Below, piece by piece: positions 16,401 through 62,995 of a stretch of 64,000 bases of DNA. Source of the stretch: Branchiostoma floridae (lineage: Eukaryota; Chordata; Leptocardii; Amphioxiformes; Branchiostomatidae); the NCBI RefSeq assembly GCF_000003815.2, contig NC_049981.1:31833349-31897348 (forward strand), in the 5' to 3' direction. Under the pieces are notes generated by a model. It was not told the DNA's origin and did not search any database. It saw only the letters and a list, made by a program, of their open reading frames with translations. A program made the position numbers and the translations under genes. How positions within the stretch are numbered: the stretch's first letter is position 1; every line of letters starts with the position of its first letter.

Positions 16401-18692
16401 GGCTTACATGTTTAAGCAAAGCACACTGGGTCACCTCTTCTGTTTTAGATACAGCTCTTGTGTATGCAGAGGTTTGACGTCTTAGGCTGATGATTAGGCT
16501 TTCCAAAGTCAAAGTGGACATTGTCATGACTGGTGTTTTATCCTTCCTCCCCAGAATCCCAGTGGGTAGCGACACGTTCCACTACATCGCCAGCCAGGGC
16601 CCGCTGCCTGTCACTGCCGGGTCATTCTGGCAAATGGTGTGGGAGCAAAGGGCAGAGGTCATCGCCATGGTGACCTTGGACATGGAGGGTGGGAAGGTAG
16701 TACAGTGTTTTTTAATCATTTGTCTATTTTAAACATTTATTGATTGATTGATTTATCTTAAACTGTAAAGAACAATGACGGCCTGCTTCAGTAAACATTG
16801 ATTGATCATCATCATCAGTCGGCTGCTGTGCAGTCGATCACAAGTCTTTTCCACCTCAGTCTGTCCGCAGCCAGTGCAGCAATAGCGAATGGGCTCAGGT
16901 CACCCTCCGCGTCCCCCAGCGGCAAGGATGATGATGATAAACCATTTATTTTGAATAAATTTTGGAAATGTTATCTGGTTGTCTAATTTTCATTGACGTG
17001 TCAAGTAAAAGACCTGTTCTTCCCCCTCTCATAGGTGAAGTGTCATCGCTACTGGCCGGACTCGTCGGAGACTCCCCTGACCTTCTGGAACAAGTACGAG
17101 GTGAGCCTGGTCTCCTCCCAGGCGCTGGAGGACTTCAACATCCGCACTTTCAGCCTCAGGGACATGGAGGTGAGGCGGTTTCCATGACAACGTGTAGGAT
17201 TCAAAGGGCAGGGTTCAAAATACTTCCTATGGCCAGGTTGCCCAGAAACATTTGAGGTTGCCAAAGGTTGAAGGTGCTGCAAGTGAATTATCTCACTCAC
17301 TCACTCATGGCAGGGTATTGTCGCTCTCTCTGAGGAACCCCTCCCTTGAACTACTCCAGAAAGTGGATTCTATCCAAAACGTCTGACCGTTTCAAAACCA
17401 TATCCAGTTGCTTGAGTAACTATTTTTGGCGTATCTTATTACCTGGATGTCTAACCTACATCGACGTACTCCAGACTCTTATACTACAGGTTTATGTGGA
17501 GCCCACATTTGGTGATGGGCAATGTTGATTATGATTGTTTGAAATCAGCAACCACTCTAGGGGTGAGAAAACATGGTTGCCAAAGACAGGTGGTTGCTCA
17601 GGACAGGGTGGGATTAACTGATAATAAGAATATAAGGGACTATTTCAATGTGGCCTGTATCGTTGTTACCCATCTTGCAAGGGTTGGACGTTGCGAGATG
17701 TCATTCAGGTCTGATAGCTGATCTCCAGCTGCCTCTGTCCAGGGGGTTGGCTTGTTGCAAGTTCAGTTTTCGAATTTCGAATGTTCTCTAAACACAAAAT
17801 CGTTAATTTTCCAGACGAGCGAGGTCCGCTCGGTGACTCACCTGAACTTCACCACCTGGCCCGACCACGGCGTCCTCAAGTTCGCCGACCCCCTTCTCCG
17901 CTACACGCGCGTCATCCGCAGATTCCACCAATCAGGGCCTGTCGTGGTGCACTGCAGTGCCGGGATTGGTCGGACGGGGGTGCTAATTCTGGTCGATGCT
18001 GTGATTGGTCTGGTGGAGAGGGACCAACCATTTGATGTCCAGAAGCTGGTAGAAATCATGAGAGAACAAAGACAAGGGATGGTGCAGACAAAGGTATTGT
18101 TTGGAGAGGGGAGCTGGCTATTGTTAACAAATGCAAAACCTAACAGACAAGTAAATAAACTTTTGTAAGGTCTTTTACAACTTTTCAGAGAAAAATTACC
18201 TACTGTTGAAATCTAAAGCAAAACAAAACTTTATTGACAGACCAAGAGAACATGGATTTCTACTTTAAAGGTATTCTACAACTTTAAAACGGCAAAAGCA
18301 AATACTATACATTTAGTAGAGTTAGCCTATTGTACATATTTATAAGTCTACACGATATCATGTGTCATCATGTAGTAATAAAAATTTGAGTACATGTACC
18401 ATTTTCAACTTTTCACTGACTAACTTTGCATTGTGATGTGCAAGAAAGTTTACTACATACATGTATATGTAGATTTGAAATTGTAGTGTTTGAGGATATG
18501 CACTGTTGAAGTGCTTAGACTTAACTTGAAGTTAACTTAGATGTTCTACACTATAAGCACTGTCAAGATCAGGAAAGGCTTTAAGAAGTAAAACCCAAAA
18601 AAAATCTTGTTTTTCTTGTTCTCCATCTTTTACAGGAACAATATGTCTTCTGTTACCAGTGCTGCCTGGAGATGTTACAGAGTCTCAAGTGA
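35..18692 (+). CDS. PTPN13: PTPN13-like protein tyrosine phosphatase, 3' part (five PDZ domains plus PTP domain)
   Basis: Multi-exon gene that enters from the left edge and ends at TGA 18690-18692. Exons read by eye: 35-120, 733-825, 1298-1484, 1987-2198, 2688-2780, 4682-4775, 5164-5312, 5599-5751, 6615-6792, 7261-7471, 7897-8161, 8559-8651, 9394-9561, 9785-10034, 10646-10690, 11263-11403, 11892-11951, ~12290-12358, 12514-12558, gap, ~13585-13697, 14070-14393, 14958-15130, 15757-15908, 16555-16696, 17035-17169, 17815-18093, 18636-18692. Domain order is five PDZ domains followed by one C-terminal PTP domain, which is the PTPN13 (PTPL1/FAP-1) arrangement. In vertebrates this cytosolic scaffold phosphatase also carries KIND and FERM domains, which would lie upstream of the window. 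The catalytic loop ([10 protein letters not shown]) and WPDHG are intact, so activity is expected. The small exons around 12.3 kb are the least certain, and exons may be hidden in the 12705-13582 gap. Confidence 0.9.
1987..2780 (+). CDS. PTPN13: PTPN13-like: second PDZ domain (two exons)
   Basis: Exon 1987-2198 encodes [20 protein letters not shown], with the GLGLSI carboxylate-binding loop, then a long loop and [20 protein letters not shown]. Exon 2688-2780 finishes the domain with a helix ([19 protein letters not shown]) and runs into a linker. The intron between them (2199-2687) contains nothing coding that I can support. The next intron received a LINE copy 38 bases after the donor at 2781. 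Confidence 0.85.
2819..4163 (+). mobile_element. 5'-truncated LINE (Tx1/L1-like ORF2 C-terminus) with target-site duplication
   Basis: An open frame from the element's 5' edge to 3853 encodes about 345 residues of a non-LTR retrotransposon ORF2 C-terminal region, recognised from LPNFYK-like [30 protein letters not shown] and a Cys/His knuckle ([19 protein letters not shown]). The frame is followed by about 300 bases of 3' UTR and an A-rich TAAATAAAA tail to 4163. The 16-bp sequence AACTTCTAGACCAAAA occurs at 2803-2818 and again at 4164-4179, an exact target-site duplication. The element is in sense orientation in the intron after exon 2688-2780. The uninterrupted frame argues for a recent insertion. 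It lacks the reverse-transcriptase and endonuclease domains, so it is not autonomous. Confidence 0.9.
4523..4590 (+). repeat. Truncated tandem duplicate of a PTPN13-like linker exon
   Basis: This stretch repeats the start of exon 4682-4775, including the upstream ttgttcctt..cag acceptor context, and would encode [20 protein letters not shown] before diverging at ACCATAG. A further copy of the upstream intron (TTCACAGATGTACATGTAAC) sits between the two, so a ~160-bp segment was tandemly duplicated. The left copy has no donor in the right place, so it is probably not spliced in. Confidence 0.75.
4682..5312 (+). CDS. PTPN13: PTPN13-like: Ser/Pro-rich linker exons between PDZ 2 and 3
   Basis: Exon 4682-4775 (acceptor tttccccag) encodes [20 protein letters not shown] and an acidic tail. 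Exon 5164-5312 encodes a Ser/Pro/Gln-rich linker ending in [11 protein letters not shown]. Neither has a recognised fold, and they probably form a flexible spacer between PDZ domains. A decayed duplicate of the first exon lies just upstream at 4523-4590. The donor of the second exon (GGG|GTTAGC) is weaker than the others. Confidence 0.7.
5599..6792 (+). CDS. PTPN13: PTPN13-like: third PDZ domain (two exons)
   Basis: Exon 5599-5751 begins after a poly-C/ctctag acceptor and encodes [20 protein letters not shown], containing the GLGF-type carboxylate-binding loop, and ends in [10 protein letters not shown]. Exon 6615-6792 continues with [20 protein letters not shown] and the final strand TVTIRVYRR, then a Pro-rich linker. 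Splitting the PDZ right after GDRLMK|VNG resembles the fifth PDZ (9561|9785), so the exon architecture is repeated. The intron contains a foldback MITE at 6346-6582. Confidence 0.88.
6346..6582. repeat. Foldback MITE (family with AGTTGCTTGAGTAAC ends)
   Basis: The left arm starts GAGACAAGCAACTGGACATG and the right arm ends ATCCAGTTGCTTGAGTAAC, with internal complementary pieces around CAGTGACACTGAAGTGATC and GATCACTTCAGTGTCACTGA. The same ends recur at 8851-8947, 14421-14660 and 17372-17470, so this is a dispersed family. It carries no coding sequence. Confidence 0.7.
7261..7471 (+). CDS. PTPN13: PTPN13-like: fourth PDZ domain
   Basis: A single exon after a ttgttgtcag acceptor encodes [10 protein letters not shown]..., [40 protein letters not shown] and a final strand (EVEIKATR). 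The first strand is contributed by the end of the preceding exon ([13 protein letters not shown]). This is a complete PDZ fold, although the usual GDxxLxVNG is replaced by [10 protein letters not shown], a divergent version. The donor is GTGGGT at 7472. Confidence 0.85.
7897..8651 (+). CDS. PTPN13: PTPN13-like: linker exons between PDZ 4 and 5
   Basis: Exon 7897-8161 (acceptor ttccatag, donor GTACTC) encodes a Pro/Ser/Arg-rich segment with many SP pairs, a likely disordered linker with proline-directed phosphorylation potential. Exon 8559-8651 encodes an Asp/Pro-rich segment built on short quasi-repeats ([16 protein letters not shown]). No enzymatic domain is visible. The introns on either side are AT-rich; the following one holds a foldback MITE at 8851-8947. 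Confidence 0.7.
8851..8947. repeat. Short foldback MITE, near-perfect hairpin
   Basis: GTTACTCAAGCAACTGGATA at 8869 pairs with TATCCAGTTGCTTGAGTAAC ending at 8936, and the flanks TGCCAAAA/TTTTGGCA extend the pairing. It is followed by the family tail ATTACCTGGATGTCTAATC and CATCGACGTA (8953-8985). It is the shortest member of the family seen at 6346-6582. Confidence 0.75.
9394..10034 (+). CDS. PTPN13: PTPN13-like: fifth PDZ domain (two exons)
   Basis: Exon 9394-9561 encodes [20 protein letters not shown] with the GLGFSL carboxylate-binding loop and ends VKVGDRLLQ. Exon 9785-10034 continues [20 protein letters not shown] and the strand TVQLAVSR, followed by a charged linker ([20 protein letters not shown]) and [11 protein letters not shown] at the donor. 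This is the best-conserved PDZ in the window. The sequence around the second exon's donor is repeated in decayed form downstream at about 10148-10195 and more weakly near 10240-10290. Confidence 0.9.
10148..10195 (+). repeat. Decayed duplicate of the exon 9785-10034 donor region
   Basis: The bases AAGAGGGCAACGCCAGTCAC and the following CGACAAAGGTGAGGTCAAAG repeat the end of the fifth PDZ exon and its GT donor (10007-10055) with few changes. A third, weaker echo is near 10240-10290. The copy still carries a GTGAGG donor-like site but no acceptor. Confidence 0.65.
10646..15130 (+). CDS. PTPN13: PTPN13-like: inter-domain linker exons between the last PDZ and the PTP domain
   Basis: A series of short, low-complexity exons: 10646-10690, 11263-11403 ([20 protein letters not shown]), 11892-11951, ~12290-12358, 12514-12558, a gap that may hide exons, ~13585-13697 ([20 protein letters not shown]), 14070-14393 (Pro-rich, ending in a poly-Asp/acidic stretch) and 14958-15130 ([20 protein letters not shown], then a predicted helix). 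They look like a long disordered spacer. The repeated PPLP/SP motifs could bind SH3 or WW domains, but that is inference. Exons at 11.9-12.6 kb rest on splice sites and an open frame only. Confidence 0.6.
11457..11725 (+). repeat. Two decayed tandem copies of exon 11263-11403
   Basis: The segments starting near 11460 and 11630 repeat GGCACAGCATGGGTC, CCCACCACCCAGGT, CTGACTGGCAGCTGGCAGAC and GAGGATACAGGT from the real exon, in the same order and with increasing divergence. The last copy even retains the GATACAG|GTAGGG donor. They are imperfect and carry frame breaks, so they look like decaying exon duplicates rather than alternative exons. Confidence 0.7.
12705..13582. other. Assembly gap (N run) inside the PTPN13-like gene
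   Basis: 878 unresolved bases. The exon at ~13585 starts within two bases of the gap end (AG then GAAGCG), so its acceptor is at the gap edge and further linker exons may be hidden. Confidence 1.
13715..13880 (+). repeat. Fragment of a tRNA-derived SINE
   Basis: A B-box-like GGGTTCAAATCC at 13755-13766 is followed by CCCTTGGAAAAGGCATTTCA and TTTCCTCACTCTATGAGGTG, the characteristic post-tRNA region of deuterostome SINEs. The fuller copy is on the minus strand at 55625-55964. The 5' tRNA part is degraded. Confidence 0.55.
14421..14660. repeat. Foldback MITE, diverged member of the same family
   Basis: It starts with GTCACTCAAGCAACTGAAAA and ends with CATATTCAGTTGCTTGTTTA, then the tail TTACTTGGATGTCTTAAAC and TTCATTGACGTAGA. 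It also contains the CAGTGACACTGATGAAAGG segment shared with the 6.4-kb copy. It is located in the intron after exon 14070-14393. Confidence 0.65.
15461..15601. repeat. Foldback element with ~50-bp arms
   Basis: CTACTTGACACTACAATTAT at the left pairs with AATCATTGTAGTGTCAAGTAG at the right (first 20 bases complementary), and ACAGCATCCGCTGTCA pairs with TGACAGTGGATGCTGT inside. The two arms occupy nearly the whole element, leaving a loop of about 40 bases. It lies in the intron just before the PTP domain. Confidence 0.8.
15757..18692 (+). CDS. PTPN13: PTPN13-like: catalytic tyrosine phosphatase domain and C-terminus
   Basis: Five exons carry a full classical PTP domain: 15757-15908 ([28 protein letters not shown]), 16555-16696 ([20 protein letters not shown]), 17035-17169 ([15 protein letters not shown]), 17815-18093 ([10 protein letters not shown] with the general-acid Asp, [15 protein letters not shown] with catalytic Cys and Arg, and QRQGMVQTK with the Q-loop Gln) and 18636-18692 ([18 protein letters not shown], then TGA). 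All catalytic residues are present, so this is expected to be an active phosphotyrosine phosphatase. The stop follows about 13 residues after the usual EQY motif, which gives a C-terminus of normal length for PTPN13-type enzymes. Confidence 0.93.
17293..17470. repeat. Interspersed repeat fragments in a PTP-domain intron
   Basis: CTCATGGCAGGGTATTGTCG to ACTACTCCAGA (17305-17360) matches the sequence flanking the hAT-like element at 38.75 kb. The stretch 17372-17470 (CATATCCAGTTGCTTGAGTA, ATTACCTGGATGTCTAACC) is a solo end of the foldback family at 6346-6582. No coding potential. Confidence 0.55.
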
Positions 18693-33314: not shown

Positions 33315-36300
33315 CTAAATCTTTGTCCCTGTCTGCTGATACCTTGGTCTAAGTAACTTGTCCCAGTATTTTCTATCCTGACGTAATCGCACGCAAAGTT
33401 CCTTGCCAACGGAGAAAGCGTCGTTCCATCTGCTTTTCTTAACGACGAAGTTCCCTTTTCTTGTCTTCGACGAATGGCAGTACTTAGAGACGTCGCTGTT
33501 GACGCGCATGAAATGATTCACTTCTTGTTGAAAGTCAGCGCTCTCCTGACTGATCTGTCTGTGAAACGACTCGTTAAAACGAGTGTATAACAGCACGTCG
33601 GCGTAGTTGTGCTCGTAGAACGCGCGTTTCATCTTGTCCGTTATAGGCGCCTTGAGTCCATATTTTTTATTCCTTGAGTGTCGCCCAATTGTGTAAAGAA
33701 TGTCGTAAAAAGTCCAGCACATGCGTCGCTTCAGTAGAATCAAGGATGCAGAAAGATACTCCAAGATCAGCACTGTTTTAAAATCGTTTTCGATGCCTCG
33801 CACGAACTCCTCAACGGCAGTGTGGTTAGTGTAATCTCCCTCTGCAAGTCCCAAATCGCGCGCCATGCAGTTCCTAAAGCAAACATGTTCCCTCAGCTTT
33901 ACCAAGTACTTAGTACTTACAAGCTCAAGCTGGAACAGTGGGTCCCAGTAACTCGGTCTGTGGAGGTAGGTGGTGACAGGAGCAATTCCTTTGGGAGTTT
34001 GGTTCTGAAGTCCAGGAAAGCCTTTTCAATATGAAAATAGTTGAAAGCAGACTGGATCCGCTGCAGTGGTTCTCGTAGAATTGTAACATACCTGAATTGG
34101 AAACAAATTTTAAAGGAGAATTGGGATCACAAAACATCAAAATGTTAAAATGATATTACAACCATATCAAAATATATGTATTTTGTATCTTCCCCTGCTT
34201 TTCGAGTTCATACAGCAGTGCGGTGTCCAATAAAGGAGGCTCTAGCATTTCCTCTTTCCAGATTCAAATGTAACCGTTTCCTACTAGCAACTTAACTTCT
34301 TGTCTACAGTCACAAAAAGGCAGAAAAAGTCTTCAAGCCAAGACTATTCTTGTAGACGACAACTTATTATTATTATTGTAGACGACAAATACACTGCAGT
34401 ACCACAAGAAGCTACTAGAAGGCTCATTATCGAATTTGAGCTTCGTTTCCCCAATTCGTCTCCACCTACAAATATCATGAGGATCCATCCACAGCTGCTC
34501 GAGTTATGCACGTGGCAGAAAATTAGCAAACCTATTTATACACAGACAGACGGCATAGAAGACATAACACTTCTTGGCGAAGGTAACAAAGTTATGTGTA
34601 CAAGTGATGTGAACAAAGGTTCAAACAAACCAACCAACATTGTGTTTAGAGCCATGAGTTGTCGAAAGCGTGTTCTGTTGTAAAACGCGTGGTGACCGAA
34701 GATGTTCCAGCGTCTTCCGCNNNNNNNNNNNNNNNNNNNNNNNNNNNNNNNNNNNNNNNNNNNNNNNNNNNNNNNNNNNNNNNNNNNNNNNNNNNNNNNN
34801 NNNNNNNNNNNNNNNNNNNNGCATAACATCGAAACAACGTCAATGGCTTTTGTAAGCTATGTAAGGAATATCTAGATGAAGTTCTACATAAGCGGACGCG
34901 TAATAGAAATATCAACAGTAGGATAAAAATAAGTCATCATTCCTGATTTCATTGTTGATTTGGCTTTGATGTACACAGCAAATTAATGAATTGGAAATAA
35001 GTATCGAGACATAAGTAACGTTATACTTACTTGATGGTCCCAAAACTTCCTATGATTTCACGGCCTACTTGACGTGGCAGAGCAACAGTCAAGTTGTGTT
35101 CGTACCCAAATCGAAGGAGCATGTGGAATAGCAAAGAAGACCCACACTTGTGAACCTTCATTAAAGCCACGTTAACATGCGGCCGACAGGTTCCGTTGCT
35201 ATATGGCAACAAAAAACAAGATTCCTTTTTTTACCTTTGCTGGAAAAGTTCATCCTCCTAACGCCCGGTCCCCAACGGCATTAGCCTATGGGGCCCTGCT
35301 ATCTCATGCCCTATCAGTGGTTATTATGATTGTCGCCACAAACCAGCTGTCAACCAATCAGAGAATAGGCTTTTCTTGGGCTTTTTGTTGTCGCAAGCTG
35401 TCTCGCAAAGGCCGCTGGGAAGCTATCAGCCAATTATGTTACGTATTACATAGCTCCATCCTCCTACGCCCGATCCCCAACGGCTGACTGCCCATATAAG
35501 GGCAAGATCATTAATATTTATAAGTAGGTCGGTCCCTAACTGGTCTGAGTGCACAAGATAGCAGAGGTAAACACAATGAGTTTTGACACGACTATGATCC
35601 CTCTGCGTAGGAGAATGGAAAAGTTATGTTTATGTTTCGGGTCTGTCTGTCTGTGTGCTTGAACAGAATTACGTTATATTGTGGGCATTTGTGGCATTTT
35701 CAACTCTACTTTGTAAACCCCTGACAAGTGAGCTGCACGGTAGTTTATACAGGCTATGGTCAGTGGCAGTTACGGCTGATGCACTCATATTCATGGCACG
35801 GCCGTTTGTTTAACAGATCATTATCAGTGAAGGAGATGCCACATACAGTCAAACCTGTCTATAGCGGCCACTCAAGGGACCGGACAAATTTGGCCACTAT
35901 AGACAGGTGGCCTCTGTATAGAGGTGGCAACTTATAGATAAAATACCCAAGGTACGGACAAAAAGTGGCCACTATGGACAGGTGGCCCCTCTGTAGAGGT
36001 GGCCCCTAATACAGGTTTGACTGTACAAGCGCATCTGTTGGATCTGGACATTCAAAACAAGGTAAAGAACCAATTATTATGCAAGTTCCTTCAGTGTTAC
36101 GCATTGTGTCTCATTTATAACAAATAAAGACGACATCATCCCTTTTTAAAAATAGCTTCTGATTCATTATCAATATCATAAATGTAACTAAGTATGATGA
36201 AGAAACTGGTCTGAGGAAGTGTGTTGCTATGGCGTAGTAAAACCCGACACCCCATGGCAGGATAAATGTTATGCTCCACCATTTGCACTCATATATACAG

Positions 36301-44900: not shown

Positions 44901-47860
44901 AAGGATTTGCAGCATCGCACACTGGAGCATGCCCCTAGCCTGGTATCCAGCCGTATTATAGCTCCCGAGTCTCCTCTGTCCTCTTGACAAATTCTCTGCA
45001 TTTCAGGAGATGATAGAACAGACTCGGGAGCTATAATACGGCTGGATACCAGGCCAGCATGCTCCTAGAGTCCTACTCTTTTTTTTAAGGTGTAAAGACC
45101 TCCATTTAACGTCATTTAACGATCCATGTATCTTGTCTTCTCCTAGCAGCATCAAGGGGAGAAGCCCACGGGAATCCCCCATGGACACCGGCTCGGGAGA
45201 TGAGGACTTCAGTTTTGTGTACAACATGAACCACCCTCGCAGGGGGCAGGCCATCATCATCAACAACAAGGACTTCGAAAAACACACAGGTTATTTGTTT
45301 ATTAAGATTTGCCACACATGGATAAATTTCAACAGCGCGTAACTTACACCAATGTGTACAAAGATTAGGACTGGTGTTATCTGTGGCATGGCACAAAGAA
45401 CACCAGTCCTAATCTTTGTACATATAGGTGTAAGTTACGTGCTGTTGAAATTTATCCAATGAGGATGTCCCTTCCTTTTCCTGGAGGAAACCCATCTGTA
45501 GATACATGTACATGTATATTTGTGGTTTTAACAGCTGTATAACCTCATTAGCCTGTGTTTACACAATCTCTCGCTGGCTGGAGTTAATTACCCCTCCTCC
45601 TAGGGCTGCGGCAATTGTAAGGCCGGCCGCTAGGGGCGTGATTTTAGTCAGGCTATATAATCTCGTGTCATTTTTACGTTACCCCTGTTGTCCGTGTGCA
45701 GGCATGAACACCAGAAGAGGAACGGATCTGGACGCCAACAACCTCTACAGGATCTTCTCCAAGCTGGGCTTCGAGACAAAAGTGTTTGACAACCTGCCCT
45801 GCAGGAAGATTCTTTCAGTGCTGCAGCTGGGTAAGGGTTTTGATATTCTTTCCGAACCTTACCTTAGATATTAGTCTCTCCCAGGCCTCTTTCTACGGCA
45901 AATTGGGCCACCCTTCTCCAAATGTGTCCGAGGCCTGTATATGTCGGGCAGGTTGCTATAAGCATGATTTAATGATGCTGCCCACTCCCCCAGCTGCTAG
46001 AGAGGACCACGCCGATGTGGACTGTTTCGCCTGTGCAATCCTGAGCCACGGGGAGGAGGGGGTCATATACGGGACGGACGGACACATGGAGGTCACAGAA
46101 ATCACCAAGCCTTTCCGGGGGGACCGCTGCCCGGGCCTGGTGGGGAAACCCAAACTCTTCTTTCTACAGGTCAGTCGGAAGATGGAGTATGGGACATGTG
46201 GCGTTAATTTAGCATCTAGACTACATGTAACTCATGGTAACATGCATGCGTAATGGAGGAACGAGGCAGAAGGTTAAACCCAAACTCTTCTTTCTACAGG
46301 TCAGATTCTAGATGGTCAGAATGTATGATTTGGAATTGTTCAGCATAGTGATTTATTAACATGAAACATGTACTAGAAAAAGAACAGAAACAAATTTGTG
46401 CGACGTGAAAATTGTTCACATTACATGTCGATAGTGAATAACAAATTTTCTATTGCAGGACTGAATGAAGACGAGGGCATTTCATCTTCATGTTGTTTTA
46501 AAGGATGCACCCATATGTTTATTTACCAGGCGCATCAAGGGAATGATGCACTCATGTTTTTGTAAGAATGACACTAATTGTAAAGTATGTTTAAAGAAAA
46601 TCTTACTATTTTCCCAGGCATGTCGAGGGAATGAGTTTGACCATGGAGTGGACATGCCTGACGCGCTGCCAGAGGTGCAAGACGAGCTGGACGCAGGAAA
46701 CAAGGCCACACTTCCGGCTGAAGCTGACTTCCTACTGGCCTACAGCACAGTGCCAGGTGGGTTTGCCATGTACAAATGTCTTGGACTGTCTTAGAAATGT
46801 CTACAACATATTATATACAGGGGTAATGTTCAGCTGTGGTATACATGTACCTTCCCTTGTGTGCCATGATTGGCATCTGGGCCATGGTACACCCAGGCTC
46901 TACTATAGCCTTGTTTAACTTCTTAGGTTACTGATCCTGGTGTAACCCAGGGGCGTGGGTCATGTTACATACTAACCCAGCTGTTGTTACCCACCCAGAC
47001 TACTACTAGTGTGGGTCGTGGTACACACTAACCCAGCTGCTGTGTTTACCCACCCAGGCTACTACCTGTGGCGTAACCTGGGGCATGGGTTGTGGTACAT
47101 ACTAACCCAGCTGTTGTGTTAACCCACCCAGGTTACTACTCGTGGCGTAACCCGGGGCGTGGGTCGTGGTACATACTAACCCAGCTGTTTTGTTTACCCC
47201 TCAAGGCTACTACTCGTGGCGTAACCCGGGGCATGGGTCGTGGTACATACTAACCCAGCTGTTGTGTTAACCCACCCAGGTTACTACTCGTGGTGCAACC
47301 TGGGGCGTGGGTCGTGGTACATACTAACCCAGCTGTTCTTACCCACCCAGGCTACTACTCGTGGCATAACCTGGGACGTGGTACATACTAACCCAGCTGT
47401 TGTTACCCACCCAGGTTACTACTCGTGGCGTAACCTGGGACGTGGGTCGTGGTACATACTAACCCACCCAGGTTACTACTCGTGGCGTAACCCGGGACGT
47501 GGGTCGTGGTCCTTTACATCCTTAACTAAAAGCTAGCTGAAGAAAATAGGCTGCTAGTTTATAGACTTGACTTTGGAATGAATAGTTGCAATTGCTAACC
47601 CAGCTGTTGTTACCCACCCAGGTTACTACTCGTGGCGTAACCCGGGTCGTGGGTCGTGGTACATCCAGGCGCTGTGTGCGGTGCTGGAGCGGGAGGGGAC
47701 GGAGCTGGAGATCATGCAGCTGCTGACCCGGGTTAACAAGCTGGTGGCGTACGACTTCCACTCCAACTCCGACAACCCCTACATGAACCGCAAGAAGCAG
47801 ATACCCTGCATCATGTCCATGTTAACGAAAGACCTGTTCCTCTCTCCGAAATCACAGTAA
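41988..47860 (+). CDS. Effector caspase (caspase-3/7-like), complete, seven exons, 329 aa
   Basis: Exons 41988-42006, 43661-43805, 45147-45289, 45702-45830, 45994-46169, 46618-46756 and 47622-47860 total 990 bases with all phases agreeing. A short prodomain (about 80 residues, no CARD or DED) leads to [45 protein letters not shown] with the catalytic His, [19 protein letters not shown] with the catalytic Cys, and an Asp-rich interdomain linker (VQDELDAG). The small subunit has [19 protein letters not shown], whose YSWRN...GSW shape is typical of executioner caspases. The short prodomain fits a protease activated by initiator caspases rather than by self-association. The start is the first ATG, with a GACG|GTAAGT donor after six codons. 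Cytosolic Asp-specific protease executing apoptosis. Confidence 0.93.
44926..45063. repeat. Foldback element in a caspase intron
   Basis: The 35-bp arm at 44939-44973 (GCCTGGTATCCAGCCGTATT...) is the exact reverse complement of 45021-45055 (...AATACGGCTGGATACCAGGC), and GAGCATGC/GCATGCTC lie outside them. The loop is about 47 bases. Located 84 bases before the acceptor of exon 3. Confidence 0.85.
45320..45457. repeat. Foldback element in a caspase intron (second)
   Basis: Left arm GATAAATTTCAACAGCGCGT...AGATTAGGACTGGTGTT pairs with AACACCAGTCCTAATCTTTG...GCTGTTGAAATTTATC. The arms are almost 58 bases long with one small bulge, around a 20-base loop. It lies 31 bases after the exon 3 donor. 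Confidence 0.85.
46275..46306 (+). repeat. Duplicate of the caspase exon 5 donor region
   Basis: AAACCCAAACTCTTCTTTCT followed by ACAGGTCAG repeats 46146-46174, the last codons of exon 5 and its GT donor, about 130 bases downstream in the intron. It has no acceptor of its own. Confidence 0.75.
46925..47515 (+). repeat. Tandem array of about nine decayed copies of the start of caspase exon 7
   Basis: Each ~55-75-bp unit contains an acceptor-like CCCACCCAG, then GTTACTACTCGTGGCGTAAC, a CTGGGGCGTGGGTCGTGGTA stretch and CATACTAACCCAGCTGTTGT. The units correspond to the intron end plus about the first 15 codons of exon 7 ([15 protein letters not shown]), which lies at 47622. Copies start near 46925, 46999, 47058, 47131, 47206, 47279, 47350, 47414 and 47470. 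Several keep the reading frame and the AG acceptor but lack the rest of the exon. Confidence 0.88.
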
Positions 47861-51078: not shown

Positions 51079-53989
51079 TTATGTCCTTCGCTTCCTTCTC
51101 CTCTTCTTCGGTGGAGCCCTTGTAGGAAGCGCTGTAGATGCATGTACAGACAAGGTAAATTTGAGATAACATGTCGTGGGTATGGCATGACACATTGAGG
51201 CTCCAACAGTTAACACAGGAAGTTGCTATGCATCTGGAATCTACTAATAGTACTGGGCTCCACATTCACCATGCCACCAACTGAACTACCTGGCCGGCAA
51301 ACTCAACTGGCAATTGTTCTCTGCCTATCTACATGTTTCCAGCGACCTGTGGAGCCTGGTGGAGGCTACTATCCACCCTCTGTTTGAATATGAAGACAAT
51401 GTAAAATTCCCCGCCCTATGACTGAGCCAGATACAGTAGATGTCATACCTGATGCACCATCTGATGGTCCCACCTCTCCCGGTACGTCTGTCGATCCGCT
51501 GTTGTCAGCCAACTCTAAAAACCAGAAACATCGTCAAGAGGCTTGATAACGGTGTTGAATTGCTGCCCTGTCGGCAGCTTCAGCGAGAAGTACTTTCTTC
51601 CAGTAGGAAAGGAAACGTTCTTTACGTCTTGCAAAGCATTTCGGACATCTGGTTGTGGACACCTTCGAGGTGAAAGCTAACGCATTCTTTTGCTGCAATT
51701 GGTAGCCTTTTCTTCGAGGCAGTTTTGGCGTCAATGTTGCCATCCGTTGTATGCAGGCCGTGAGACGCCGTTTCATAGTGCTGCTTTTGTAGATACCTCG
51801 TAGGTACCTGTACTGTAGACATCGTCGTTGTTTCAGACGTGTGTACATGCGTGTGGGCAATTCAGCCTGACGTAAACAATATATAAGTAAGATAGAGATA
51901 TCAGATCATCAGAAGGACATACTCCGAACATACGTTTGTAGGGTTGCATGCATTATACCTGGAAATGCCCTCTTCAAACGATGTGCTTCCAGAACCAACT
52001 GGAGCCCCGCCTCAGACAGCGCAGCCTTGAAGACCTGGGTTGTGGCCTCCTCCCCTCTCAGCTTCTTCCACTCCTCTAGCATGTCCATGTAGCGGGACTC
52101 GTCGTCAGGGTTCCTGTGGGCGATGTCGCTGACAGCTGCACTCCCAAAGCCCAGAAAGAAGGCCAAGTTCTTCCAATACGGCGCCACTGCCTCCTTGATG
52201 TCGTGGAAGTATGATCTAGTACCTAGGGACGTTTGTCATATCAATTAGAAGATCGCGTTTACATCTGTTATATGTAAGCGCTGGCCCAGAATCGCCTTGA
52301 CGCGGGCCACTCAATCTAACGATAGGGAGACCCAAGTAAGTAAGCTTTACCGTCCTATCTCTTAACTTCCCTAAGATACAAACTTTCCAAATACTTAGGC
52401 TCACCTCAGTGCTCGAGAAAAATCAGAGCAGAACAAAATCATTCTGCATTGAAAACGTGGCATGCCGTGAATGGATAGATTCGGCAAATCTTAGTTTCTG
52501 ACTTAACATAAAATAAAACAAACAAACAAACAAACAAACAACCCGTCATGTACCTGCAATGTGTGTTGAAACCAGTTGTCGCCTCACAGGCTCTCCGGGC
52601 TCTTAGGGTGCCGACTGACCGCCGTCAGATCCTTCCGTGCCGTAGGCTCGTTTGTTGCGCCCTGGGAGAAAGATTGATCGTAGATTCGGGGTTTGTTAAT
52701 CTTATTCACTGTGTACAAAACATACTGTCATGCAGAAGGCTAATGAGGCCGATAATATGTACTTCTCTCGTAATGTATGACTGGGTAAATCATGACAAAT
52801 ACACCAAGATTCGTATTTTTTCCCGAGGAATGAAAAAATGTATTAGGCATTGATGTTTATGGAATAGAATAAAGTCCAAGCTGTGTTTACCTTGACTTTG
52901 CTGTGAGAAGTGTTCCCTCTGTGCGGTTTGTTGACCAGGTTGTGTCGCCAGCTGTTCCCCGATGCCGTAGTGCCGCGCCCAGTGCCGCTCCTGTTCCTCC
53001 ATTTTCTCCGCCAGGAAGTCCTGTCCTTCCTCCCGCAGGACCCGCACGAACCAGTCGTACGGCTCCTGCCGCCTCCTGTCATCCAGCATCTCTACCAACC
53101 TGGGAACCAATCTTGCTGGTTTCGACTCCATCAGCACCCAGACTGGATTGTCCTCACAATAACAACAACAACAATTAGTAGATACTTTTGGACTGCTATT
53201 TTTGTGTCCTTCCCTTTATGCTATCTGGTTTGAACAGAGAGCATGAACAAGGTAGGCGCATACATGTGTGTCAACATGTATACATAAGAGGGTGAAATAG
53301 AGTAATTGTCTAATGTTATGTTGTTATTGTTGTCGCGATCGATCAGAAGTGCTGACATGCATGAAATGTGTTCTTAAAGTTATCTGGAGCACAGCTTAGT
53401 CATCTACGACGTTAACCTACATGGGACACCTGGCAAGTATATGATGAGAATCTAAGTACAATGTACAAGGCAAAAGGCAGCCCCGCCCGTTACTTCATGT
53501 AAAGGGTAAAACTGGTGGGGAGGTCTGTCGTAGCTCAAAACGATTTGCCGCGGCAAGTCAATTTTAAGGATGACATCCGGGCGCTCATTACTTTTGTGAT
53601 GCCGGTTTATTGTGTCTATTTTGAAATTTGCTAGCTTGTTTTTTTTTTTACCCATCTTGTTTTTTTACGCGCCATCTCATTATTTTTGCAGTGGATGTCA
53701 TCCATAAAATTTACTTGCTGTAGCCATATATTCCTATCTTTATTTCCTGAGACGTCCGTACGGCTGCGATGAAGCGAACATCATGAATTGTAAATACAGG
53801 TTAGGAGCGTATCCAAGACAAATAAAAACTTTAATGTCAGGTTCATGTTTACCTGGATGTCGCGGACCTCAGCCGGGCTCAGCTTGTTCTCCTGTTCCAG
53901 CCGTGTGAGAACAGCTGGGAGGTTCATGTTGTCATACAGGATCCCACGATTGTGGAACAAGGTCACCGTGCACGGATACCTCAGTTCAC
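51079..53989 (-). pseudogene. CARD-Death adaptor paralogue with premature stop and no TIR exon
   Basis: Minus-strand exons mirror the right-hand gene: 53989-53853 and 53152-52891 form the CARD (MNLPAVLTRLEQENKLSPAE, then ARLVPRL-type PARLVPRLVEMLDDRRRQEP, FLAEKMEEQE). Exon 52661-52554 is a basic linker, 52222-51959 the Death domain (APYWKNLAFFLGFGSAAVSD, RYMDMLEEWKKLRGEEATTQ), 51514-51449 a Ser/Asp linker and 51131-51079 the tail APPKKRRRKRRT. In the 108-nt linker exon the codon at 52605-52603 is TAA where the paralogue has TCA, cutting translation after the CARD. The exon is a multiple of three and phase-symmetric, so skipping it would restore CARD-Death. No TIR exon or matching ATG exon is seen upstream. 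It may be a pseudogene, a CARD-only decoy, or alternatively spliced. Confidence 0.7.
52603..52605 (-). other. Premature TAA in the linker exon of the left CARD-Death gene
   Basis: The frame entering from the CARD exon (phase 1) reads GQSAP, then TAA, then EPGEPVRRQLVST. The paralogue reads GQSTP, TCA, EHGRPVRRQLVSS. A single C-to-A change explains it. Confidence 0.85.
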
Positions 53990-57909: not shown

Positions 57910-58478
57910 TCACCTTGTCTTTCTTCTCCTTTTCTTCGGCGGTGCTGTAAATACATGTACAGACAAGGTAAATTTGAGAAATTGGGATGACATATTTAGA
58001 TATGTCGTGGGTATGAGAGAACACATTCGGACATCAACAATTACTTCCAACTGGAAGGCAAGTAATTTTGTCAATTTTGTTTTGTATTTATTATTTCATT
58101 TGATCACTTGTAATATAACTTCTATTCCATTAGTATACTTCACATAATAATTTCAACTTATTTTATGTGCTTTTTTTGTTCACTTCAATTATGCATAATT
58201 CAATTATTTCTGCGACTTAGTTCTGGGGGAGGCCCAAGAAAAGCCACATAGGCTTCTGCCCACCCCCCGCATGTACTTCATTTCTGTATATACATTTGTT
58301 TTTAAGCCATGTTGTTATGTGCGAAGAAAGAAAGACAGAAAGAAAGTAAGAAAGAAAAAGAGAGAAAGAAAGAAAGAAAGTAAGTAAGAAAGAAAGAAAG
58401 AGAGAGAGAAAGAAGGAAAGAGAGAGAGAAAGAAAGAAAGTAAGAAAGAAAGAAAGAGAGAGAGAGAAAGAAAGAAAG

Positions 58479-58536
<58 letters not shown>

Positions 58537-61500
58537 TTGCTACGCATCTGGCCTCTACTAGGCTCCACATTCACTATGCCGGCAACTGTACTCCTTAGCC
58601 GGTAAAATCAACTGTTATCTATTTGAACACGAAGCAATGTAACTTTCCCGCCATATGACAGCCAGATACAGTAGATGTCATACCTGATGCACTATCTGAT
58701 GGTCCCGCCTCTCCCGGTTCGTCTGTGGATCCGCTGTTGTCGGCCAACTCTGAAAACAAAAACATCGCCAAAGGGCCTTTACTTACGCTGTTGAATTGTT
58801 GTTAGTGTCGGTGCAACTGTACAGCGAGAAGCACTTTCTTTTTGCAGGGAAAGAAATCTTCCGTACTTAATTCATTCAAAGCATTTTGCAAACAAAAAGC
58901 ATCAATGTCTTAACAGCTTATGAATGTATTCTCCAAGTGCACTGTTAAATTATATTGTAAACGAAAATCTTCAATTTGATCCAAATGGCTGGCTGAGAAA
59001 GGGTTTACCACTCCGTAAGGGGCGGTATAACCCCGTCGTGTGTAAACATGTGCGAACATGTGTGATCACGTCGACCGATGATGATGATGATGAGATAACA
59101 TACATTGTACATTGTGCATTGTACAATAGCCGCAACCTACGATGTAGGTCGACCCGAAACAGCCTTTATTTATGCACCTTCGACGCCAGGAGGCGAAACA
59201 TGACGCATTAATTTGCGCCTCCTGGCGTCTGGGAGCAATTTTGTCTGATTTTTGCCGCATGCAATCAGAAGCCTTCTCTTCGAGCCAGTTTTGGCGCCAA
59301 TAATGCCATCTTGTATGCAGGCCGTGAGACGCGGTTTCATAGTGCTGCTTTTTGTAGATACCTGCACTGTAGACATTGTCGGCGTTTTTTTATAGATGTG
59401 TGTATGGGCAATTGAGCCTGAAGTAAACAATAGTTAGGTCTATCAGATCATCAGAAGGATCATATACGTTTGTAGGGTTGGATGCGTTATACCTGGAAAT
59501 GCCCTCTCAGTCAAACCACGTGCACGCAGAACCCCCTGTAGGTCCGCCTCAGACAGCGCAGCCTTGAGGACCTGGGTTGTGGCCTCCTCCCCTCTCAGCT
59601 TCTTCCACTCCTCCAGCATGTCCATGTAGCAGGACTCGTCGTCAGGGTTCCTGTGGGTGATGTTGCTGACAGCTGCACTCCCAAAGCCCAAGAAAAAGGC
59701 CAGGTCCTTCCAATACGGCGCCACTATGTACTGGAAGTGTGATCTAGTACCTAGGGACATTTGTAAACATTTGGTCGGAATTTCTCAGCTTCATGTCAAT
59801 TAGAAGATCGTTAACATGTGTTATATGTAAGAGCTGGCCCAGAATGATCACCTGGAATGACGTAGTATGGTCAGTAGTATAGGAGACGTAGTATATGAGA
59901 CGTCGGGTCCTTGACGCAGGCAACTCAATCTAACGATGAGGAGACCTTAACAAGTGAGTAAGCTATATCCCTCAACTTACCTACGATACAAACTTTCCAA
60001 ATCTCGATACTTATCTTTACCTCAGTGCTCGAGAAAAATCAGAGCAGAACAAAATCATTCTGCATTGGAAAAAGCCCTGCCAAGAATGGATGGTTCATAA
60101 ATTCGGCAAATGTCAGTTTACGACCTAACAACCTGTCTTTAGTACCTGCAATGTGTGATGAAACCAGTTGTCGCCTCACAGGCCTTCCATGCTCTGAGGG
60201 TGTCGACTGACCGCTGTCAGATCCTTCCGCGCTGTGGGCTCGCTTCTTGCGCCCTGGGAGAAATATTGATCGTAGATTCGGGTTTTTTCTTATTCACTGT
60301 GTAGAAGGCTAATGAGGCCGACATATTACTTCTCTCGTAATCTATGACTGGGTAAACCATGAATCCAAGGAACGAAAAAAAACGTTATCCAAGGAACGAA
60401 AAAAAATGTATATGGAATGGAAGAAAGTGCCGACCTTGACTTTGCTGCGTGAAATGTTCAGTCTGTGCCGTTTGCTGACCAGGTTGTGCCGCCTGCTGTT
60501 CCCCGATGCCGTACTGCCGCGCCCAGTGTCCCTCTTGTTCCTCCATCTTCTCCGCCAGGAAGTCCTGTCCTTCCTCCCGCAGGACCCGCACTAACCAGTC
60601 GTACGGCTCCTGCCGACTCCTTTCCTTCAGCATCTCTACCAACCGGGCCCCCCTTCTTAATGGTGTCGGCTCAAACACCACAAAGAGTGGATTGTCCTAA
60701 AAAAAGCAACAACAGTTAATAGACACTTTTGTACTGCTATTTTTGCGCTCTTACTTTTATGCTATCGACTTTAAACAGAGAGCAGGCCTTAGGAGCGTAT
60801 CCAAGACCAATAAAAACTTTATAAATGTCGGGTTCATATTCACCTCGATGTCCCAGACCTCATCCGGACTCAGCTGGTTCTCCTGTTCCAGCCGTGTGAG
60901 AACAGCTGAGAGGTTCATGTTGTCAGCCAGGAACGCACGATTGTGGAACAAGGTATACCAGCACGGCCACCTCAGTTCACCTGTGGAGATGGACAACAAA
61001 CGCCACACGTCACTTACCTGGTTAGGTTTTGCAGAGACATCATATTAGCTCAGAAGGTATCTAAATGGCTCGTACTAAAACACTAAAAACATACACGCCA
61101 ATACTACATTTCCTCCTTATTCTATTGTTAGATTCTAATCAGTGCAATAGGGTCAATACTGGAGATTACATTTCGGGTAACAAGCCTTTCACATACTCAC
61201 GCCGTAGGCCTCCACAAAAAACGTACGGACAAAAGACGCGTACTGACTTATTTTTCTGAGACAGTGGAAGAAGAAGAATCACATCTTTTCTGTAATGTGT
61301 GGGTTCTGCGATGTTAGAAGGAGAGTAGTTTTCTTTCTGTCTGTAAACGTAATCATATAAGAGCCATGATGAATGTATGATTTTATTTTGTAAAAACGTT
61401 GCAGCTGGTTAGCTGAATTGCGAATTAGTTACAGGAGTCAAGCTACAAGCATATCTACACATGCATAAATTAGCAAAATCATCGGGACTAAACTTAGATA

Positions 61501-62995
61501 TCGAATTTCGAGTAAAAACAGCAAAAATCTACAAGCCACTCAGACAATTTATACTAAGACAATGTTAAAAATGCGAGGCTGATACAAGAGAGGAAGATCA
61601 TGGGCCTACAGAACAAGATCGTTGTTGTAAAGTGACTTCCGAATACATAGTCAGAGTACTAATGGTCTCTAATATAGTACTAATAGTCCTTAATATACAC
61701 ATTCAGACACTAGTCATCACTAGCATACAGCAGACGTAAGGCACGTAGGATGAAGGACATCGCATGTCTTTCAGTTTTGCTGATATCGTCTTCTGCTGAG
61801 TAAACCGTAGTAAGTGTCCGTGGGGCTGGTTAAGAATGCCCAGAGAGAAGACTCGTCCTGAATGGTATGTTCAAGTGTTCTTAATGTGGCTCTGTCACGT
61901 CTACTAGCTCGTATTGGGATGGATCAGAGTCAACAGAAAGTCCAATGATTCTCATACAACGCTTTTGAACATATTCAAGATATGTCCACCCTCACCTGTT
62001 TGTCTGCAGAGGACGCTATTCATATCCCAGGCGATGCCTAACATCCCCCTGACAACACTGCCGGGCATCGTCTCCCAAACCCTGTCCCGCTGGACCCGCC
62101 TGGCCGGCGCCTCCAGGGTTGGGTACTGCCGGCTGACTAACGTGCCGAACTCACGGAAGTCATCCTTGTTCTGGTCCAGCCAAATGACGTATCGAGGCTT
62201 GTTGTTCCTCACGGCAGTTTCCAGTCCGACCGTGAGCGAGGACTGGTCAGCAAGAAGGTGTCTGCTGATCACGGGCACGACAAGTTTCACGCTGCCGTGG
62301 GTCAGCAGGTCACCAGGAGTGCCTGTGACCTGCTGACAGATGTCTGTCTGGGGTAGGCTGTAATTCCCGGACAGATACCTCAACTCCCCCACTAGCCTCC
62401 CGACGAAATCCAGATCTTCTGCTGCGTGCAGGAGGACAACACGTGGACCTGGTAGGGAATAACGGGTTCACAAATTGTAGTATGTTTTACTAAAGTATGT
62501 TTGAAAAGTGTGAATTTTACATCAAACCAAGGACTACAAATTGGCAAACATAAACAGAATATATACATATACAACATATACGAAAATAGGCCAGGCAATT
62601 TTATCTAGATATAAAAATCACTTACCAAAAAGTACCATTATTCTGATTAAGGGGTCGGCCTAGGTTTCTTCGTCTTTTAAACTCATCTTGTATGTTGATT
62701 TTAAATGTGTGGCGTTAATATGTCAATAAAGATGATGTCAACCCCCCTTGCTCAGTAGACTAGCCTAGAGGCAAGTGCGATTTTTAATGAAGATGAAAGT
62801 AAAACGGCAAAATAGAACAGATCATCTTGACAAAGATAAAAATTGACATGTTAAAAGTTCATGTAGACTTCAAATCTATCGTATGTTGATATGCTTTTTG
62901 AGTCGAAATATCCCCAAGAATATTGCCGCTGAATGTTAAAAGCTATTGTTAACACTTTGAAGTGACAATTATCGAGATAGCTTACCTGTATCCAT
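57910..62995 (-). CDS. TIR-CARD-Death domain adaptor with C-terminal nuclear localisation signal, 442 aa
   Basis: Eight minus-strand exons with agreeing phases total 1329 bases: 62995-62986 (MDT), 62448-61996, 60980-60844, 60696-60435, 60253-60146, 59750-59493, 58749-58684, 57944-57910. Residues ~4-155 form a TIR-like alpha/beta domain (PRVVLLHAAEDLDFVGRLVG, VKLVVPVISRHLLADQ, NNKPRYVIWLDQ). Residues ~155-250 are a CARD (LFHNRAFLADNMNLSAVLTR, LSPDEVWDIE, RLVEMLKERSRQEPYDWLVR, EGQDFLAEKM). A Gln-rich and basic linker (RKKR, RPVRRQ) follows, then a Death domain ~325-410 (YWKDLAFFLGFGSAAVSNIT, DMLEEWKKLRGEEATTQVLK), a Ser/Asp linker and the tail APPKKRRRKTR. TIR, CARD and Death domains are homotypic interaction modules of innate immune and apoptotic signalling. 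The combination with an NLS suggests a signalling adaptor that may shuttle to the nucleus (inference). The TIR assignment is the weakest, as its boxes are divergent. Confidence 0.8.
58321..58537. repeat. (GAAA)n microsatellite
   Basis: About 215 bases of GAAA repeats with GAGA and GTAA interruptions, ending in a pure (GAAA) tract. It opens long spurious FLSF frames on the minus strand. It lies in the last intron of the TIR-CARD-Death gene. Confidence 0.95.
59182..59229. repeat. Inverted repeat, 14-bp perfect arms
   Basis: GACGCCAGGAGGCG (59182-59195) and CGCCTCCTGGCGTC (59216-59229) around a 20-base loop (AAACATGACGCATTAATTTG). It is GC-rich against its surroundings and absent at the equivalent place in the left duplication copy, so it may be a small insertion. 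Confidence 0.75.
61996..62448 (-). CDS. TIR-like domain exon
   Basis: A single 453-base exon, phase 1 to 1 (151 codons), that encodes the whole N-terminal domain. The pattern is hydrophobic strand, acidic D/E pair, helix (VVLLHAAEDLDFVGRLVGEL), and later S-x-K-hydrophobic strand-S (SVKLVVPVIS) and another strand (PRYVIWLD), matching TIR topology. The BB-loop motif (RDxxPG) and FW box are not clearly present. The frame stays open past the donor for 14 codons to a stop at 61952, so unspliced transcripts would give a TIR-only protein. Confidence 0.65.
62626..62638 (-). CDS. Possible alternative first exon of the TIR-CARD-Death gene
   Basis: ATG GTA CTT TTT G followed by GTAAGTG, a strong donor. 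It ends in phase 1 with G like the MDT exon (62995-62986), so it could equally be joined to the TIR exon, giving MVLFGPRVVLL. If both exons were spliced in series a TAA would result, so they could only be alternatives. Support is splice signal and phase only. Confidence 0.35.

What the first reader, a model, noticed from the sequence alone, without database searches (positions are those of the whole stretch)
57910..62995. TIR-like + CARD + Death domain + NLS in one protein
Eight exons with fully consistent phases (total 1329 bases, divisible by three) join three different homotypic interaction modules and end in APPKKRRRKTR. MyD88-type adaptors combine Death and TIR, and RAIDD-type adaptors combine CARD and Death. 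A single protein with all three plus a nuclear localisation signal is not one of the standard vertebrate architectures I know. It could link TIR receptors directly to caspase or Death-domain platforms, with a nuclear step.
Basis: partly seen in the sequence, partly recalled or inferred. Interest (0 to 1): 0.92.

Follow-up and report, generated by a model that had tools for sequence, protein, structure and literature searches.

The report
Shortened amphioxus TIR-CARD-Death adaptor gene
A lancelet (amphioxus) gene does join three immune and cell-death interaction modules and a nuclear-type tail, and it looks like a cut-down member of a lancelet family of large immune proteins whose contact surfaces vary strongly from copy to copy.

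Summary
The eight-exon model is real as gene structure: exact junctions, seven GT-AG introns, 1,329 bases, 442 aa. The genome is Branchiostoma floridae. NCBI's model LOC118411837 (P0001) is identical for residues 1-431 (exons 1-7) but skips exon 8 and runs on into a second CARD-Death unit.

Death is confirmed directly, CARD through the fold of a relative, TIR only through divergent relatives. This copy has lost one TIR helix, and 35 of 35 aligned family proteins lack the TIR-NADase glutamate. All 17 TIR copies found in the C3 cluster have a CARD exon next to them.

The gene is best read as a shortened member of a Branchiostoma family: 23 of 49 collected models have TIR-CARD-Roc-COR-Death-FIIND-UPA-GT4, and one has the window gene's two ends with the middle present. 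The window lacks that middle.

Unexpectedly, CARD helices 1 and 4 carry a hypervariable stripe, with dN/dS about 2 in helix 1. Most likely: an ungated short adaptor or decoy of its long relatives. Function is inferred.

The parts
62986..62995 (-). exon 1 (coding part, MDT + 1 base); relatives begin METG
   Evidence: starts of P0002, P0010, P0012
61996..62448 (-). exon 2: TIR-like domain, lacking 8 residues of helix B plus 1 residue compared with relatives; NADase Glu column is Gly, Trp column Ser
60844..60980 (-). exon 3: CARD helices 1-3 (helix 1 face hypervariable between paralogues)
60435..60696 (-). exon 4: CARD helices 4-6 and Gln-rich linker
60146..60253 (-). exon 5: linker (RKKRAHSAEGSDSGQSTPSE...), homologous to the linker that follows FIIND-UPA in long relatives
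59493..59750 (-). exon 6: Death domain (called Death2 here)
   Evidence: (Pfam Death 34.0 bits)
58684..58749 (-). exon 7: acidic/Ser-rich tail
57910..57944 (-). exon 8: terminal exon with basic tail APPKKRRRKTR; not used in NCBI model P0001
   Evidence: similar tails in unit A' and P0039
53853..53987 (-). unit A': second CARD exon (helices 1-3), matched stretch; no TIR exon found upstream of it
52883..53155 (-). unit A': CARD helices 4-6 and linker, matched stretch
52552..52662 (-). unit A': linker match (P0001 uses about 52618-52662)
51960..52223 (-). unit A': Death2, about 80% identical to exon 6
51444..51521 (-). unit A': Ser/acidic tail, matched stretch
51082..51138 (-). unit A': terminal exon with basic tail APPKKRRRKRRT

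Best explanation
It is a Branchiostoma floridae gene, an internally shortened member of a family of large immune-type proteins found so far only in Branchiostoma. The commonest full member is TIR-CARD-Roc-COR-Death1-FIIND-UPA-linker followed by a GT4-conflict glycosyltransferase domain; a rarer form ends in a second Death domain (Death2), in one case with a basic tail like the window's. Shown: the window gene keeps TIR-CARD and linker-Death2-basic tail and lacks Roc-COR-Death1-FIIND-UPA. Shown: its TIR has lost the signature residues of TIR NADases and, in this copy, helix B. Inferred: with no GTPase switch and no FIIND it cannot be gated like its relatives, so it works as a short ungated adaptor or decoy. 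Its CARD and what is left of its TIR would co-assemble with, or compete with, the long relatives through the conserved faces, its Death2 would bind the Death2-type partner, and the basic tail would send it, or the complex, to the nucleus. A family-wide hypervariable CARD face (helices 1 and 4) would set which partner each copy meets. The reading holds in outline for either product, the 442-aa or the 705-aa one.
Against: No transcript was available; NCBI's model skips exon 8 and appends unit A', so the 442-aa form may be minor or unused. The CARD of this copy is under Pfam's cut-off, as it is in 8 of the 11 TIR-CARD proteins scanned. The TIR has no Pfam hit in this copy; the window-family profile alone gave 0 PDB hits and hhalign against TLR-type TIRs was not significant. 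The structure model of P0001 itself is poor (mean pLDDT 47.5; its first CARD region mostly 66-86 apart from one block at 50). Two other cluster units also lack a FIIND match, and they were not examined, so the window unit is not unique in that. Binding, decoy action and nuclear entry are untested. The damaged TIR could mean decay rather than function.
Confidence: 0.6

Rival explanations
1. The main product is the longer NCBI form: exons 1-7 spliced to unit A', giving TIR-CARD-Death2-CARD-Death2-basic tail (705 aa). Exon 8 is then an unused or alternative last exon left from tandem duplication. (Overlaps with the best explanation, which does not depend on which product dominates.)
For: NCBI model P0001; no TIR exon was found between 57.9 and 54.0 kb, so unit A' lacks an obvious start of its own.
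Against: Exon 8 has an AG acceptor, a stop and a basic tail matching the end of A' and of P0039. Lancelet gene models have a high rate of errors (PMC4967905, passages seen); P0008, a model probably of the same locus, carries GT4 at its N-terminus whereas 31 of 49 have GT4 last, so models here do merge neighbours.
Confidence: 0.4
2. A decaying copy: shortened and with a damaged TIR, on the way to a pseudogene.
For: TIR helix B lost in this copy alone (1 of 35); JGI model P0008 (90.6% identical to unit A over 436 columns), probably the other haplotype, has it; two other TIR copies in the cluster are frame-broken.
Against: All eight exons are open with intact splice sites; the loss keeps the frame; Death2 of A versus A' has dN/dS 0.58; NCBI predicts a protein.
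Confidence: 0.2
3. The TIR exon belongs to a separate gene and the combination is a prediction artefact.
For: Lancelet architectures are often mispredicted (PMC4967905); the TIR-CARD intron of this copy is 1,015 bases, the longest of the seven.
Against: 17 of 17 C3 copies pair TIR with CARD in the same order and strand; 39 of 39 models with this TIR have CARD next.
Confidence: 0.04
4. The TIR is an active NADase effector, triggered by CARD/Death assembly.
For: The nearest solved relatives of the TIR group, found through its divergent members, include the NADase AbTIR.
Against: The catalytic-Glu column is Gly in 35 of 35 and the Trp column Ser or Leu in 35 of 35; helix B is missing in this copy.
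Confidence: 0.03

Closest known systems
Branchiostoma TIR-CARD-Roc-COR-Death-FIIND-UPA-GT4/Death2 proteins (e.g. P0031 LOC118411848; P0013 named MFHAS1 by its source; P0039 LOC144904749)
   Same: TIR, CARD, linker and, in P0039, Death2 and basic tail; unit B and others lie in the same gene cluster
   Different: the window gene lacks Roc-COR-Death1-FIIND-UPA and TIR helix B
MyD88 (Death-TIR adaptor; recalled)
   Same: joins a Death and a TIR domain in a small protein
   Different: reverse order, extra CARD and basic tail; the TIR resembles TIR_2 more than five TLR-type TIRs tested
RAIDD/CRADD (CARD-Death adaptor; recalled)
   Same: CARD followed by Death
   Different: RAIDD has no TIR and no such tail (recalled); the phmmer searches listed no RAIDD chain
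PIDD1 / NLRP1 / CARD8 (FIIND/ZU5-UPA with Death or CARD)
   Same: Death2 follows UPA in the long relatives, as Death does in PIDD (recalled); PIDD is described as accumulating in the nucleus (PMC7290664, passages)
   Different: the window gene has no FIIND-UPA, so no such processing
Animal GT4-conflict immune proteins and bacterial AP-GTPase (Roc-COR) conflict systems (PMC8195603)
   Same: long relatives combine Roc-COR with a GT4 domain, as some bacterial systems do (section 15 read)
   Different: animal, with added TIR-CARD-Death-FIIND; the window gene has neither GTPase nor GT4

Membership tests
Branchiostoma TIR-CARD-Roc-COR-FIIND family | TIR of this type joined to CARD | tested here: met
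Branchiostoma TIR-CARD-Roc-COR-FIIND family | Roc-COR GTPase, Death1, FIIND-UPA | tested here: not met
   no match in the window at E<=1e-3; hence a shortened derivative, not a full member
TIR domain | sequence homology to TIR profiles | tested here: met
   through intermediates: A4 versus A7 E 2.4e-26, A7 members TIR_2 7 of 7 and TIR 5 of 7; direct Pfam scan 5 of 11 family members at TIR_2, best E 0.0031; none for the window copy
TIR domain | TIR fold, alternating strands and helices | tested here: inconclusive
TIR NADase | catalytic Glu | tested here: not met
   Gly in 35 of 35; AbTIR E208 per PMC10022894 (passages)
CARD | six-helix CARD fold | tested here: met
CARD | Pfam CARD above cut-off | tested here: not met
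   this copy 14.0 (whole) and 18.2 (piece) bits against 23.9; relatives P0002, P0004, P0005, P0039 pass
Death domain | Pfam Death above cut-off | tested here: met
   34.0 bits against 22.6
MyD88 | Death then TIR | tested here: not met
   order is TIR-CARD-Death
MyD88 | TLR-type TIR | tested here: inconclusive
   hhalign with five TLR-type TIRs not significant, E 0.26; the divergent relatives do match them, E 8.1e-5
RAIDD/CRADD | CARD-Death protein without further domains | tested here: not met
   an N-terminal TIR is present
PIDD/NLRP1 FIIND family | FIIND-UPA | tested here: not met
   no FIIND or UPA in the window
Nuclear protein | working nuclear localisation signal | not testable with these tools
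   basic tail PKKRRRK present; similar tails in A' and P0039

The most novel reading that the evidence does not exclude
Lancelets run a germ-line diversified intracellular receptor family in which the adaptor modules themselves, the exposed faces of CARD helices 1 and 4 and the TIR AB-loop region, are the hypervariable recognition surface. TIR core and CARD helices 2 and 5 stay nearly fixed. C-terminal outputs are swapped between a GT4 glycosyltransferase and a Death2-nuclear module, and short forms such as this gene act as in-family adaptors or decoys.
Probability: 0.3. Interest if true: 0.85.

Novelty: new variant of a known kind. Interest (0 to 1): 0.6.

Why it matters
It gives a concrete, testable case of domain shuffling in basal-chordate immunity that stands up better than most to the known problem of lancelet gene-prediction errors, because the TIR-CARD join is seen in 17 genomic copies and in models of several species. 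It also points to a family that joins modules used separately in vertebrates (TIR adaptors, CARD adaptors, ROCO GTPases, the FIIND of NLRP1/PIDD) with a glycosyltransferase otherwise discussed for conflict systems. A hypervariable CARD face would be unusual for an adaptor domain and bears directly on whether a signalling interface can be the diversified part of an innate receptor.

Tried and rejected
Artefactual TIR-CARD join: judged unlikely (17 of 17 copies; 39 of 39 models). Active TIR NADase: judged unlikely (catalytic Glu lost in 35 of 35). TIR remnant upstream of unit A': none found at E<=10 between 54 and 58 kb. GT4 as the N-terminus of this gene (model P0008): judged a merger, since 31 of 49 models have GT4 last and P0008 alone has it first.

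Direct TIR detection failed: hhalign window family versus five TLR-type TIRs E 0.26, as weak as the Roc control (E 0.19 over 11 columns); PDB profile search 0 hits. It was solved only through the 33-44% relatives. The PDB hits of profile A8 are driven by its three divergent rows of six. The model of P0001 was poor and no fold search was made with it. Foldseek on P0002 gave no match at E<=0.001; Apaf-1 and RIP2 CARDs came first, and two TIRs ranked 9 and 47 among lumazine synthases and other unrelated folds.

dN/dS is pairwise NG86 with a codon bootstrap, not a tree-based site test; over the whole 42-codon CARD stretch the ratio is 1.26 with 23% of bootstraps at dN<=dS, so the signal is confined to helix 1. 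Over the whole TIR it is 1.02, and 1.09 in the N-terminal part. TIR core identity of 98% in DNA between units A and B suggests gene conversion, which may distort dS. TIR helix A, helix E and CARD helix 6 showed no significant one-sided pattern (p 0.054, 0.65, 0.09).

Rows dropped: one search used 14 of 15 intact copies for CARD; one search used 16 of 17 (one did not yield the anchor motif); one search used 35 of 49 proteins (P0009 and P0041 left out by name, the rest by coverage). My first caspase exon piece at 46595 was sent in the wrong frame and gave no caspase match; the right frame did.

Literature: I saw listings with abstract beginnings, and passages or one section of seven papers. None of what I saw described this architecture. 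Most subscription journals are not held, searches listed mostly off-topic papers, and supplementary files (such as the TIR partner table of PMC2575513) were not opened, the cap being 0.
Full report
WHERE. The window is G000:C3:31833349-31897348 of a 513 Mb, 431-contig genome. The best database match to the predicted protein is NCBI LOC118411837 [Branchiostoma floridae], on a contig of 34,247,348 bases, the length of C3 here. So this is amphioxus, not a vertebrate.

OBSERVATION. P0001 (LOC118411837, 705 aa) is identical for residues 1-431, which is where exon 7 ends. It then skips exon 8 and continues into a second unit whose matches lie between 53,996 and 51,082: CARD, linker, Death, basic tail. 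No TIR remnant was found between 57.9 and 54.0 kb. Whether exon 8 or unit A' ends the transcript cannot be settled without RNA. P0002, P0010, P0012, P0014, P0025 and P0031 start METG, so the 10-base first coding exon is conserved.

IS TIR REALLY JOINED TO CARD? Banyai and Patthy warn of many lancelet gene-prediction errors (PMC4967905, passages seen), so I checked genomic copies. The TIR exon finds 50 rows in this genome: 19 rows, which are 17 copies, on C3 between 31.9 and 33.3 Mb at 76-100% identity, and 31 rows elsewhere at 33-44% (the tool calls such counts lower bounds). In 17 of 17 C3 copies (15 intact, 2 frame-broken) a CARD exon follows on the same strand inside the fetched flank. Of 49 collected proteins 39 have this TIR and all 39 have CARD next to it; they come from B. 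floridae, B. belcheri, B. lanceolatum and two hybrid genomes. The join is well supported as conserved gene structure; no transcript was seen.

WHAT THE GENE IS. Beyond the window's right edge the next unit on the same strand reads TIR-CARD-Roc-COR-Death1-FIIND-UPA and then GT4-conflict; the one after it shows Roc-COR-Death1-FIIND-UPA-linker-GT4, with its TIR and CARD at L043/L063. A search with the TIR-CARD part of P0010 returned 44 proteins at E<=1, all named as Branchiostoma (the method reaches only relatives sharing short exact words). Of 49 proteins collected over all searches, 42 have Roc, 36 FIIND, 31 end in GT4, 6 have Death2, and 23 have the full TIR-CARD-Roc-COR-Death1-FIIND-UPA-GT4 set at 1,657-1,876 aa. 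P0039 (hybrid genome, 1,392 aa, TIR cut at its start) has TIR-CARD-Roc-COR-Death1-FIIND-UPA-linker-Death2 and ends SPKKRKRTR: the same ends as the window protein, with the middle present. At C3:32184680 UPA, linker and Death2 follow one another in order (L016). In the window no Roc, COR, Death1, FIIND, UPA, GT4 or DED matches at E<=1e-3, and exons 4 and 5 are separated by only 181 bases. A FIIND match lies within 10 kb downstream of 12 of 17 TIR units and within 16 kb of 14 of 17; the window unit is one of three with none. So the gene is best read as an internally shortened member; direction (loss rather than a primitive short form) is inferred from the majority pattern, not from a tree. P0008's N-terminal GT4 is then the end of the upstream unit wrongly merged.

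HYPERVARIABLE FACE. In 35 of the 49 proteins (those covering TIR and CARD fully) the TIR core and CARD helices 2 and 5 barely vary. Positions at 2 bits or more are 170, 174, 177, 178 (CARD helix 1), 221, 225, 228, 229 and 231 (helix 4), 258, 261, 262, 265, 266 (end of helix 6), 283 and 287 (linker), and in the TIR 25, 27, 28, 30-33, 35 (helix A end and AB loop), 145, 151 and 155 (P0002 numbering). The one-sided pattern is unlikely by shuffling for helix 1 (p 0.004) and helix 4 (p 0.005); helix 6 (0.09), TIR helix A (0.054) and helix E (0.65) do not reach that. At DNA level, among 16 of 17 copies, the helix-1 part (19 codons) has dN/dS 1.96 with 1.9% of codon bootstraps at dN<=dS, and the following 23 codons 0.47; the whole stretch has 1.26 with 23%. 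Among 15 intact copies the TIR N-terminal part has 1.09, the core 0.58, the C-terminal part 1.65 and the whole TIR 1.02. These are pairwise estimates. The recalled view is that CARD helices 1 and 4 form one side of the type I CARD-CARD contact; if so, the varying face is a partner-binding face.

MECHANISM. Shown: domain content, absence of the middle, loss of NADase residues, missing TIR helix in this copy, basic tail. Inferred: an ungated short adaptor or decoy. The long relatives carry a GTPase and a FIIND; PIDD, a known protein of the FIIND/ZU5-UPA-Death kind, is described as self-cleaving and as accumulating in the nucleus after DNA damage (PMC7290664, passages). In the Death2-type relative P0039 the basic tail sits after FIIND, which suggests a nuclear step there; whether its FIIND cuts itself was not tested. 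The window protein has the nuclear-type end without the switch. A caspase gene lies about 3-5 kb from unit A' on the other strand; this is only proximity.

LITERATURE. Amphioxus-specific TIR combinations were described in PMC2575513 (passages: 20 of 28 TIR combinations specific). GT4 fusions in animal immunity and bacterial Roc-COR systems with GT4 are described in PMC8195603 (passages; section 15 read). Death and TIR (PF13676) domains are enriched among dispensable lancelet genes (PMC12373286, passages), which fits a locus with a shortened and possibly polymorphic copy. In the listings I saw no paper on this family; subscription journals are largely not held, so this is weak evidence of novelty.

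VERDICT.

Noticed in passing
window 45708-46791, + strand: Caspase gene (Pfam Peptidase_C14 64.6 and 38.8 bits on two exon pieces; the second reads QACRG), convergent with the TIR-CARD-Death gene.
   Followed up: partly
L029-L032, window numbering about 67359-79424 and 92599-101954: Two upstream units of TIR-CARD-Roc-COR-Death-FIIND-UPA-GT4 type (the second one's TIR lies at C3:31938974-31939462), part of a cluster of at least 17 copies at C3:31.9-33.3 Mb.
   Followed up: partly
L052-L062 and 20 further rows: A second, divergent group of lancelet TIR exons (33-44% identical); the seven aligned keep the Trp and catalytic-type Glu. The architecture of these genes was not worked out.
   Followed up: partly
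TIR exons of units A (61996-62448) and B (window numbering 78939-79424): The TIR core is 98% identical in DNA between the two units while its flanks differ by about 13%, suggesting gene conversion in the middle of the exon.
   Followed up: partly
window 62638-62626, - strand: Possible alternative first coding exon ATGGTACTTTTTG followed by GTAAG, same phase as exon 1; not supported by the relatives' starts.
   Followed up: no
window 1914-2321 and 17722-18168, + strand: PDZ and protein tyrosine phosphatase exons, consistent with a PTPN13-like gene (name recalled).
   Followed up: partly
window 33318-34025, - strand: Galactose-3-O-sulfotransferase-like exon (Pfam 59.1 bits).
   Followed up: no
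window 47012-47466 and 58324-58536: A 74-base minisatellite (6.3 copies) inside the caspase region and an AAGA/CTTT microsatellite in intron 7 of the finding.
   Followed up: no
window 2768-3853, + strand: Possible remnant of a reverse transcriptase (zf-RVT 23.2 bits, below its cut-off of 27.5).
   Followed up: no
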